From a virus: 58,647 bases of DNA. The first letter of the stretch is position 1, and every line of letters starts with the position of its first letter. This document shows, one piece after another, positions 18,833 through 20,715 of this stretch. The DNA is taken from the IMG/VR virus record IMGVR_UViG_3300034012_002112, positions 1-58,647 of that record; one strand, given 5' to 3'. Below the pieces are notes generated by a model. The model saw only the letters and a list, made by a program, of their open reading frames with translations, was not told the origin of the DNA and ran no database searches. The translations under genes were made by a program, and so were the position numbers.

Positions 18833-19498
18833 ATGACCACTCTTGTTGCGAACGTACCTCCCGTCAAGGTCTGGGTGCGGCGCGAGTATTTGCGTGACCT
18901 GCGCGATGGCCATGGGGAATACACCCCCGGCTATTGGGTTACATGTAAATCGCTCACTGGCCGCGCCCTGTACTTTGAGACGTACCTGATGGAGTACGGA
19001 GCGCTGTATGACAAGCTGCCCATCAGTGCATTCTTGTCCTGGGACCCTGACCATCCGGACAAACCCGTAGCGCCAACCCCAGATCTAGAGTTGACAGACC
19101 TTCAGTTCTGGAATGGGTTTGATCACGGGTTAGTTGTTGTTGAAAAGAATTTAATCTTCAATATGAGTTTTGAAGTCCTGACACGAAGTGCAGGTGTAAT
19201 GAAGGGCACATATCTATTTACGGTTGACAATTACCATCCTCATAGAAACGAACCCGACTTCTATTTTGCGGAGTTTCCAGATGAGCACAAATCCCATAAC
19301 ATCGTGGCTCTGGACAACGGTCAAATTGGTGCTTATCCCAATAACCGTTGTCGCATGTGCGATCCATCACTGACCAACCACGACCTCAAGACGCCTGACT
19401 TCAAGGTATCCACCCGTTACTTTGATGTAGAGCAGGCACCTAAGTGGGGCCGCCTTGGTGAACAAGATGATTACTTCTGGAAAACACCTAACGAATAA
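18833..19498 (+). CDS. Conserved cyanophage protein of unknown function
   Basis: A 221-residue protein with VKVWVRREYLRDLRDGHGEY, then TGRALYFETYLMEYGALYDK and LPISAFLSWD, a set of motifs conserved in many marine phages without known function. The C-terminal half has DVNYHPH-like and CRMCDPSL segments. The start has a good Shine-Dalgarno AGGAG. It closes the basic-protein group and is followed by a structured noncoding stretch. Confidence 0.75.
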   Translation: MTTLVANVPPVKVWVRREYLRDLRDGHGEYTPGYWVTCKSLTGRALYFETYLMEYGALYDKLPISAFLSWDPDHPDKPVAPTPDLELTDLQFWNGFDHGLVVVEKNLIFNMSFEVLTRSAGVMKGTYLFTVDNYHPHRNEPDFYFAEFPDEHKSHNIVALDNGQIGAYPNNRCRMCDPSLTNHDLKTPDFKVSTRYFDVEQAPKWGRLGEQDDYFWKTPNE

Positions 19499-19509
19499 TT
19501 TGGTATAGT

Positions 19510-19560
19510 ATCTTTGATAGAGGTCAGGTCCCTGCTTGCACACCTGATCCATTATCGAAG
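19510..19560 (+). ncRNA. Long stem-loop after 18833-19498 gene
   Basis: CTTTGATA at 19511 pairs with TATCGAAG ending at 19560, and inside it GGTCAGGT pairs with ACCTGATC, leaving a 12-base loop. That is two eight-pair helices (each with one G-T wobble) and a small internal loop. No T run follows, so it is not a simple terminator. A CCTGG-GCAA-CCAGG hairpin with a GNRA-type loop comes just after (19562-19575). The stretch 19499-19928 holds no gene. Confidence 0.5.
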
Positions 19561-19632
19561 TCCTGGGCAACCAGGCCAGGGGGATGGCCTCCCCTGCCAA
19601 TAACACCCCCTATGCTTAGCTCCTATACATAG

Positions 19633-19664
19633 ACCATTTTGTTGATATCACCAAAATGGTTTTT
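19633..19664 (+). terminator. Rho-independent terminator
   Basis: ACCATTTTG pairs perfectly with CAAAATGGT (nine pairs, ten-base loop) and is followed by TTTT. It should end transcripts from the basic-protein genes and separate them from the tRNA-like elements that follow. Confidence 0.75.
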
Positions 19665-19692
19665 AGGATGATGCACAAACCTGGGGGTCACT

Positions 19693-19769
19693 GGGTCGGT
19701 AGTCCATTGGCAAGGACAGGGCGACAAGCCACACTGCACTGACAGTCGGTTCGATTCCGGCACGACCCT
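19693..19769 (+). tRNA. tRNA-like element with lost anticodon arm
   Basis: GGGTCGG at 19693 pairs with CGACCC ending at 19768 (six pairs, one mismatch). It is followed by TA and a perfect D arm GTCC-ATTGGCAA-GGAC, and it ends with a canonical T arm GTCGG-TTCGATT-CCGGC. The expected anticodon arm (GGGCGACAAGCCACACTGC region) does not form a five-pair stem with a seven-base loop. This is either a decayed tRNA gene or a tRNA-mimic RNA. Amino acid identity cannot be given. Confidence 0.55.
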
Positions 19770-19812
19770 TGGGGTACTCGCCAGGCAGATAGCCTGGAAG
19801 GAGGCCCCGTTT

Positions 19813-19883
19813 CGGGATGTAGTAGAAAAGTATCACACTGCTTTTGGGAAGCAGAGGAGAAGGGGCGGTACCTTCCATCCCGA
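19813..19883 (+). tRNA. tRNA-Pro(UGG)-like element with atypical T loop
   Basis: The acceptor stem CGGGATG pairs perfectly with CATCCCG, followed by A73. The anticodon arm CTGCT-TTTGGGA-AGCAG has five perfect pairs, giving anticodon UGG with G37 as in tRNA-Pro. The T stem GAAGG/CCTTC is perfect, but its loop is GGCGGTA instead of the TTC-containing loop. The D arm is weak (GTAG...TCAC) and lacks GG. So it is an altered tRNA-Pro or a mimic. It lies 44 bases after the other tRNA-like element; a CCAGGC-AGATA-GCCTGG hairpin sits between them. Confidence 0.55.
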
Positions 19884-19928
19884 TTCCTAATAAATTACTT
19901 ATATTAAGCAGACAACTAAAAGTTATTT

Positions 19929-20189
19929 ATGCCCTGGGCCAAGGGTAAAGAACGCATCCACCAAAATAGACAGAAGCTCTTGGAGTACAAGAAAACTTTG
20001 AAATGCAAAGAGTGTGGGATAGATGATCATCGTGTCCTGGAGTTCCACCACGTTGGGGATAAGGACAAGAATGTTTCAGACATGGTAAATCATGGTTACG
20101 GCTGGAGCCGCATCCAAGAAGAGATTGATAAGTGTATTCCGTTATGCTGCAACTGCCACAGGCTCATCCATTGCGAAGCGTCGCCTTGA
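19929..20189 (+). CDS. Small HNH-type nuclease-like protein
   Basis: An 86-residue protein with a CKECG zinc knuckle, then RVLEFHHVGDKDKNVSDMV, then KCIPLCCNCHRLIH. The pattern C-x2-C...FHH...C-x2-C-HRLIH matches short HNH proteins common in phages and cyanobacteria. It may be a homing-type nuclease next to the tRNA-like elements. It converges with the Dps-like gene and overlaps it by 26 bases. Confidence 0.75.
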   Translation: MPWAKGKERIHQNRQKLLEYKKTLKCKECGIDDHRVLEFHHVGDKDKNVSDMVNHGYGWSRIQEEIDKCIPLCCNCHRLIHCEASP

Positions 20190-20715
20190 TTTGCCAAGCA
20201 GCCTTGAATGCTTCACCGGTTAGTTCTGCCATGTAGTTCTGAATATCAATGGCACCAACCTTGGCGGCAATGGGTTCCAGCTTCTTGCACTTCATGCCCA
20301 GTTCTTCCAGGTTCTTGTAGTACACAGCAAGCATATCGTTACCCTTGTAGCTGGTAACGTTCTGGATACCAGGGCCTGCGTCTGCCAGCCCACGGGCACA
20401 CATTGGCAGAAGGTAGTCCATGGACCTGATGAACTCACTTAACGTATCGAACTGTTCAAGATGAGCCTCGTACTGGTCTTTAAGGAACCCATGCACACCG
20501 AGGAAGTTCGACCCCTCGTAGTTCAGGTGAATGAGATGGGACTGTGTTTGAAGTTCCTTGAGATAGGAACAGAGGGAGATGCACTGCTGAATGAAGGCCC
20601 CGACATCACCATTCTTTGATTTACCAGGAGCCTTGGGTTTGTCCTGGGGCTGGGGAGTGGCTTGAGTTGGGGCAGTTTGCGGAGCAGGAGCCGCTTGAGG
20701 ACCAGGGGTATACAT
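20164..20715 (-). CDS. Dps-like ferritin family protein
   Basis: A 183-residue protein with a Pro/Ala-rich 35-residue N-terminal tail, then a four-helix Dps-type core. HLNYEGSNFLGVHGFL matches the Dps helix (H-x-N-x2-G-x-NF-x2-VH), and the later FDTLSEFIRSMD supplies Asp90 and Glu94 of the ferroxidase set; His63 and His75 are spaced exactly as His51 and His63 of E. coli Dps. The position equal to Asp67 is Lys79 (Asp80 is next to it), and the conserved Trp is Leu. It may protect DNA from iron-driven oxidation or store iron. Confidence 0.75.
   Translation of the reverse strand: MYTPGPQAAPAPQTAPTQATPQPQDKPKAPGKSKNGDVGAFIQQCISLCSYLKELQTQSHLIHLNYEGSNFLGVHGFLKDQYEAHLEQFDTLSEFIRSMDYLLPMCARGLADAGPGIQNVTSYKGNDMLAVYYKNLEELGMKCKKLEPIAAKVGAIDIQNYMAELTGEAFKAAWQIKATLRNG

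What the first reader, a model, noticed from the sequence alone, without database searches (positions are those of the whole stretch)
19510..19883. Noncoding cluster with two tRNA-like cloverleafs lacking standard parts
The stretch 19499-19928 contains a 51-base double stem-loop, a GCAA tetraloop hairpin, a terminator, a 76-base element with a tRNA acceptor stem, D arm and T arm but no anticodon arm, and a 71-base element with a tRNA-Pro(UGG) anticodon arm and a perfect T stem but a GGCGGTA T loop. Each lacks a different part of a normal tRNA, which points either to decay of two tRNA genes or to tRNA-mimic RNAs.
Basis: partly seen in the sequence, partly recalled or inferred. Interest (0 to 1): 0.72.

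Follow-up and report, generated by a model that had tools for sequence, protein, structure and literature searches.

The report
Cyanophage tRNA mimics without normal parts
A freshwater cyanobacterial virus carries, among other small RNA genes, a single-copy RNA shaped like a transfer RNA whose decoding arm has been swapped for a short fixed hairpin; the same overlooked RNA occurs in at least seven isolated Synechococcus viruses and in more than 100 viral contigs, so it is a kept RNA family and not a decayed gene.

Summary
Both cloverleafs are real; neither is decaying. Element 1 (19692-19768) belongs to an RNA family apparently not described before: 6-bp acceptor stem, canonical D and T arms and, in place of the anticodon arm, a 4-bp hairpin with a bulged A and a GACAA loop. 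It occurs in >100 viral contigs and 7 Synechococcus phage isolates (S-PM2, S-EIV1, S-RIM8 and others), unannotated. 42 of 42 records searched hold exactly one copy. The stem pairs of the new arm covary; in a search that did not require the loop, 107 of 113 matches have GACAA. It usually lies in tRNA arrays. I think it is a processed, non-decoding tRNA mimic that binds a protein, most likely a counter-defence decoy (mechanism inferred). Element 2 (19813-19883) is a tRNA-Pro(UGG) with an altered elbow (T loop GGCRGUA, D-loop AG for GG), conserved in 19 other contigs, in the slot where relatives carry ordinary tRNA-Pro; a tRNA-Asn variant in other phages has the same change. The 'terminator' is the inner stem of an enlarged abiF-type RNA (19606-19688), a known toxin-neutralising RNA, with no AbiF protein gene present. 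The 'double stem-loop' (19516-19556) is another covarying RNA family without Rfam match.

The parts
19692..19768 (+). Element 1: tRNA-like RNA with replaced anticodon arm. Acceptor 19693-19698/19763-19768; D arm 19702-19717; T arm 19745-19761
   Evidence: Covariance model R1, 76.4 bits; alignment A1 and pair counts
19719..19732 (+). Replacement arm of element 1: GGGC-GACAA-GCC-A-C, 4 pairs, bulged A at 19731, loop 19723-19727
   Evidence: All four pairs change on both sides; outer pair CG12/GC12/AU1; bulged A 25/25; loop 107/113
19813..19883 (+). Element 2: tRNA-Pro(UGG) with altered elbow; anticodon 19845-19847, D region 19819-19836, T loop GGCGGTA 19864-19870
   Evidence: Rfam tRNA 41.5 bits; conserved variant with compensatory stems
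19606..19688 (+).
   Evidence: Graded series of 37, 48-49 and 82-85 nt forms; canonical RF03085 in the same position in L104
19516..19556 (+). E0: small RNA GATAGAGG-stem-CNCTG ... complement-YCCAT (the 'double stem-loop')
   Evidence: 67 of 75 distinct matches carry the exact complement of a varying 6-nt stem; no Rfam match
19562..19575 (+). Hairpin CCTGG-GCAA-CCAGG
   Evidence: Sequence; CCTGG-GNTT-CCAGG type hairpin also follows E0 in L165 and L351
19770..19812 (+). Structured spacer between elements 1 and 2 (GGGG/CCCC, CTC/GAG and CCAGGC-AGATA-GCCTGG stems)
   Evidence: Predicted fold -23.8 kcal/mol; not tested by comparison

Best explanation
Element 1 is a member of a conserved, single-copy family of non-decoding tRNA-like RNAs of Synechococcus phages. 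SHOWN by comparison: a tRNA body (acceptor stem, canonical D and T arms) whose anticodon arm is replaced by a short covarying hairpin with an invariant bulged A and a GAYAA loop; frequent location within tRNA arrays; no tRNA-like match in a pattern scan of about 85,000 prokaryote species. INFERRED: it is cut out of the tRNA transcript by host tRNA-processing enzymes, which read the elbow and acceptor stem; it cannot decode, since there is no 7-nt anticodon loop and no U33; the GACAA hairpin presents a fixed protein-binding surface (the same loop in P22 boxB forms a GNRA-like fold with the pyrimidine turned out towards a protein). The most likely role is a counter-defence decoy that occupies a host protein acting on tRNA, or a toxin, during infection; it lies next to an orphan abiF-type RNA (antitoxin of the AbiF family) and to a third RNA family. 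Element 2 is most likely a working tRNA-Pro(UGG) with an altered elbow (A18.G55 for G18.U55, G19-C56 kept, G54.G58 for U54.A58; inferred), perhaps resistant to an enzyme that reads the normal elbow.
For: Family: >100 contigs, seven isolates with no annotated feature under the match, one copy per record in 42 of 42 at 65-96 bits while all other matches score 44 or less. Structure: covariation score 0.708 against 0.196 shuffled and 0.12 or less slid. tRNA arrays: 63 of 110 loci with a downstream tRNA have it within 30 nt, mostly 4-5 nt. Loop: GACAA in P22 boxB contacts the N peptide (PMC12550061). Neighbours: abiF-type RNA directly 5' in 11 sequences or 9 nt 3' in G002, G019, G023, with no Abi_2 protein in 43 records; AbiF antitoxin role: PMC12373285; E0 directly 5' in four loci. 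Element 2.
Against: No expression, binding or fitness data. The decoy role rests on neighbours and on the loop type. Most element 1 loci show no abiF-type RNA or E0 in the stretch held. Some relatives lack element 1. The tertiary contacts proposed for element 2 are not computed.
Confidence: 0.45

Rival explanations
1. Element 1 is a processing mark: a tRNA-like fold whose job is to be cut by RNase P and 3' nucleases and so separate neighbouring RNAs in the array.
For: Spacing of 4-5 nt to the next tRNA; intact elbow and acceptor stem.
Against: Does not explain the invariant GACAA loop and bulged A, or why each genome keeps exactly one copy.
Confidence: 0.2
2. Element 1 is a protein-binding regulatory RNA for a phage protein, boxB-like, acting on phage transcription or another phage process.
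For: Loop identical to the P22 boxB loop; no tRNA-like match in prokaryote genomes.
Against: No partner gene was looked for or found; boxB acts in cis in a leader transcript, not inside a tRNA array.
Confidence: 0.15
3. Element 1 still works in translation or is aminoacylated, as an unusual tRNA with a short anticodon arm.
For: Canonical D and T arms; some members pass the Rfam tRNA cut-off in focused scans (32-35 bits).
Against: Five-base loop closed by covarying pairs, no U33, no anticodon; the outer acceptor pairs vary freely.
Confidence: 0.06
4. Both elements are tRNA genes in decay, as the first reader proposed as one option.
For: Each departs from the tRNA consensus.
Against: Compensatory changes, constant odd parts and wide occurrence.
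Confidence: 0.02

Closest known systems
Ordinary tRNA (RF00005), and phage tRNAs proposed to evade tRNA nucleases (PMC10264068, PMC11555353)
   Same: tRNA body, array location, single phage-encoded gene; element 2 keeps anticodon arm and discriminator
   Different: Element 1 has no anticodon loop; element 2 changes the elbow, not the anticodon loop
abiF RNA (RF03085), antitoxin of AbiF (PMC12373285)
   Same: 19606-19688 keeps outer stem, inner GC pairs and CAAA strand; sits beside element 1
   Different: Enlarged inner hairpin; no AbiF protein gene in the phage
P22 boxB hairpin (PMC12550061)
   Same: GACAA loop on a short stem, third loop base variable as expected if turned out
   Different: Stem carries a bulged A and is built into a tRNA body
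Non-decoding tRNA-like RNAs: pseudo-tRNA of Bacillus cereus (PMC3399842); tmRNA, YrlA and T4 RNAs C and D (from memory)
   Same: tRNA-like RNA not used as a normal tRNA; T4 C and D come from a phage tRNA cluster
   Different: None has a GACAA hairpin in place of the anticodon arm as far as I know; several are longer

Membership tests
tRNA (element 1) | Acceptor stem, D arm and T arm of tRNA type | tested here: met
   (D- and T-arm letters partly fixed by the search pattern; acceptor and T-stem covariation is not)
tRNA (element 1) | 5-bp anticodon stem with 7-nt loop, U33 and anticodon | tested here: not met
   4 pairs with a bulge and a 5-nt loop in 25 of 25
tRNA-Sec (RF01852) | Score above the family cut-off and UCA anticodon | tested here: not met
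   21.9 bits against 47
tRNA-Pro (element 2) | Overall tRNA fold above the Rfam cut-off | tested here: met
   41.5 bits against 29 in a focused scan; not listed in the whole-window scan
tRNA-Pro (element 2) | UGG anticodon, G37, C1-G72, A73 | tested here: met
   Sequence and alignment A2
tRNA-Pro (element 2) | Canonical elbow: G18G19 and UUCRANY T loop | tested here: not met
   D loop AAAAGTA, T loop GGC[AG]GTA in 10 of 10
tRNA-Pro (element 2) | Charged with proline and used in translation | not testable with these tools
   Needs charging assay
Pseudogene | Loss of constraint on the gene | tested here: not met
   Covariation in both elements
abiF RNA (19606-19688) | Score above the Rfam cut-off | tested here: not met
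   No match in the window; joined to the family by a graded series of forms
abiF RNA (19606-19688) | Outer stem, inner [AU]GC/GC[AU] pairs, CAAA strand | tested here: met
AbiF toxin-antitoxin module | AbiF (Abi_2) protein gene in the same genome | tested here: not met
   0 of 43 records
Intrinsic terminator at ~19630-19660 | G+C-rich hairpin followed by a T run | tested here: not met
   0 found
boxB | GACAA loop on a short stem | tested here: met
boxB | Bound by an N-type peptide, acting on transcription in cis | not testable with these tools
   Partner unknown
Counter-defence RNA | Binds and neutralises a host defence protein | not testable with these tools
   Inferred from structure and neighbours only

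The most novel reading that the evidence does not exclude
Cyanophages carry an RNA-based counter-defence island: at least three small RNA families (element 1, E0, orphan abiF RNAs) that each bind and disarm a host defence protein. Element 1 would found a class of anticodon-less tRNA mimics whose anticodon arm has been exchanged for a boxB-like protein-binding hairpin.
Probability: 0.3. Interest if true: 0.88.

Novelty: new variant of a known kind. Interest (0 to 1): 0.72.

Why it matters
Element 1 lies unannotated in much-studied cyanophages such as S-PM2, so its role can be tested in existing phage-host pairs. If it is a decoy, it would show that phages exploit the whole tRNA body, and not only anticodon-loop changes, against tRNA-directed immunity. 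The altered elbow of element 2, shared with a tRNA-Asn variant in distantly related phages, suggests a natural alternative to the near-universal G18-U55 / U54-A58 elbow, and that some 'pseudo' or missed tRNA genes in phage genomes may be working genes.

Tried and rejected
Decay: rejected by covariation and loop conservation. tRNA-Sec: the weak match reflects only the tRNA body. Intrinsic terminator: not supported. Pairing of the arm without a bulge (A1 columns 29-41): 0 of 25. Host origin: the scan of about 85,000 prokaryote species gave 30 chance matches, none tRNA-like; this scan required GACAA and TAGTC exactly. Element 2 in isolates: no match in 50,697 phage records. D-arm comparison suggests tRNA-Glu as nearest true isotype but the margin is small; not used. 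Pfam gave no hit for the 221-aa neighbour or the 86-aa ORF. Literature: no description of element 1 found among open-access papers.

Full report
WHERE IT IS. The window is a 58.6-kb IMG/VR virus contig related to Synechococcus phage S-EIV1. The finding lies 3' of a 221-aa gene (18833-19498; homologues variously annotated, PurM in S-EIV1; no Pfam hit) and 5' of an 86-aa ORF with an HNH-like cysteine/histidine pattern (19929-20189; my reading, no Pfam hit).

ELEMENT 1, ANATOMY. 19692-19768: acceptor GGGTCG/CGACCC with a G.A mismatch next to it; TA; D arm GTCC-ATTGGCAA-GGAC; then GGGC-GACAA-GCC-A-C; a variable stretch 5 nt longer than in most relatives; T arm GTCGG-TTCGATT-CCGGC. BLAST against loci fetched by flanking proteins gave homologues with the same plan.

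IS THE LOOP REALLY CONSERVED? The first pattern demanded GACAA, so I repeated the scan with D arm and T arm only. The third loop base varies between C and T. In P22 boxB, also GACAA, that base is turned out of a GNRA-like fold and touches the N peptide (PMC12550061).

STRUCTURE. On 25 non-redundant sequences (alignment A1) the acceptor positions, all four arm pairs and three T-stem pairs show changes on both sides. Cells paired 95.4% against 69.6% in shuffles; covariation score 0.708 against 0.196, and 0.12 or less in slid versions. The outermost arm pair is CG 12, GC 12, AU 1, paired in every sequence, and only if the A next to it is bulged; pairing without the bulge gives 0 of 25. That A is invariant. 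Letters required by the search pattern (TAGTC, GRC, GGTTCRA) are conserved by construction and are not counted as evidence. The pair next to the D arm (7-66) is unpaired in most members, mainly G.A. The folding z-score of the window copy is weak (-1.3).

DISTRIBUTION. Covariance model R1 separates the family (65-96 bits) from other matches (44 bits or less), which include ordinary tRNAs. 42 of 42 records carry exactly one high-scoring copy (they were chosen because they have one; the point is that none has two): S-PM2, S-CREM1, DSL-LC03, S-RIM8, S-SZBM1, S-RIM32 (T4-like Kyanoviridae), S-EIV1 and 35 viral contigs. No annotated feature underlies the match in these isolates. 22 of the 42 encode a photosystem II reaction-centre protein (PF00124), a cyanophage marker. 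A pattern scan of about 85,000 prokaryote species found nothing tRNA-like. In 63 of the 110 loci with a same-strand tRNA downstream that tRNA starts within 30 nt, mostly 4-5 nt: element 1 is commonly part of a tRNA array.

NEIGHBOURS. Directly 5' of element 1, 19606-19688 is an abiF-type RNA. The canonical 37-nt abiF RNA (RF03085, 53 bits) sits in the same place in L104. A graded series of 37, 48-49 and 82-85 nt forms links it to the window; the window form gives no Rfam match, which I put down to its inserted hairpin. abiF RNA is the antitoxin of AbiF, a protein with HEPN-like structure related to Cas13 (PMC12373285). Canonical abiF RNA passes its threshold in 17 of 43 records, and none of the 43 has an Abi_2 protein, so these are orphan antitoxin-like RNAs. 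An abiF-type RNA is directly 5' of element 1 in 11 sequences and 9 nt 3' of it in G002, G019 and G023 (coordinates). The 'double stem-loop' (E0) is a further RNA family: 67 of 75 distinct matches carry the exact complement of a varying 6-nt stem, with no Rfam match, directly 5' of element 1 in L163, L170, L201 and L276. In 152 element-1 loci E0 is seen in 40 and abiF-type RNA in 35 of the stretches held; many stretches are short, so these are lower bounds, and no background rate was measured.

ELEMENT 2. 19813-19883 matches the tRNA model at 41.5 bits in a focused scan. Its D region GTAGTAGAAAAGTATCAC recurs in 20 other contigs, of which one (L267) is not tRNA-like. Ten distinct sequences keep the D loop and the T loop GGC[AG]GTA while 7 pairs of the acceptor and anticodon stems change on both sides. 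No ordinary tRNA-Pro was found in the fetched stretches of these loci, whereas relatives carry ordinary tRNA-Pro(UGG) in that slot. The same T loop occurs in a tRNA-Asn(GUU) variant in other contigs and, not annotated, in Microcystis phage Mwe-JY26. In both isotypes the D loop reads AG where an ordinary relative reads GG (GGTA to AGTA in Pro; GCAGGCGAC to GCAAGCGAAC against the tRNA-Asn of phage B23), so G18.U55 would become A18.G55 while G19-C56 is kept. This tertiary reading is inference.

MECHANISM. Shown: a selected RNA structure, one copy per genome, usual place in tRNA arrays, constant hairpin and elbow, variable acceptor end. Inferred: release by tRNA-processing enzymes; inability to decode; the hairpin as a protein-binding site; a counter-defence role, from the company it keeps. 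Rival uses (processing mark, translation or charging, phage regulator) are not excluded and are scored separately.

KNOWN OR NEW. No Rfam family covers element 1 or E0 beyond a borderline tRNA score for some element-1 members. The open-access papers searched hold no description of element 1; subscription journals and preprints could not be searched, so novelty is provisional. I file element 1 as a new variant of a known kind (non-decoding tRNA-like RNA), not as a tRNA, since the anticodon-arm test fails; element 2 as a variant tRNA-Pro whose elbow test fails.

Noticed in passing
L020:5248-5323, L022:5003-5078, L046:4998-5073, L041:4925-5002, L015:3895-3970, L086:3850-3925, L029:3896-3970: A further tRNA-like element not called by ARAGORN, in most cases directly 3' of tRNA-Pro or element 2: acceptor CACCTGG/CCAGGTG, normal T arm, and a conserved arm CGGTTACTGCCGCTGCAGGACGATG. 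Absent from the window.
   Followed up: partly
L029:3732-3808, L094:2850-2926: A diverged tRNA-like RNA (35 bits with model R1) whose arm is CCGA-GACAA-TCGG, again with the GACAA loop, 3' of an abiF-type RNA.
   Followed up: partly
L147, L149, L157, L217, L246, L311; L348:1981-2075 (Microcystis phage Mwe-JY26): tRNA-Asn(GUU) variant with the same GGCAGTA T loop as element 2 and D loop AGCAAGCGAA, not annotated in the isolate.
   Followed up: partly
window 19516-19556; 75 distinct matches in loci: E0, a small RNA family GATAGAGG-stem-CNCTG-hairpin-complement-YCCAT, strongly covarying, frequent in cyanophage tRNA arrays, no Rfam match.
   Followed up: partly
L347 (Synechococcus phage B23) 1793-1863, 2499-2571, 3246-3332, 3425-3516: Four tRNAs annotated as 'Pseudo' (CCA, GTT, GCT, TGA) that look structurally intact apart from unusual D or T loops.
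   Followed up: no
window 19780-19803; E0 of L100, L372, L353: Recurrent hairpin module GGC-A[CG]ATA-GCC followed by AAGG, inside E0 in relatives and free-standing between elements 1 and 2 in the window.
   Followed up: no
L190:5417-5668: A cyanobacterial-type tmRNA (112 bits) within the tRNA array of a phage contig that also carries element 1.
   Followed up: no
window 20164-20715 (-): Ferritin-like protein gene (PF00210); S-EIV1 also encodes a DNA-binding ferritin-like protein.
   Followed up: no
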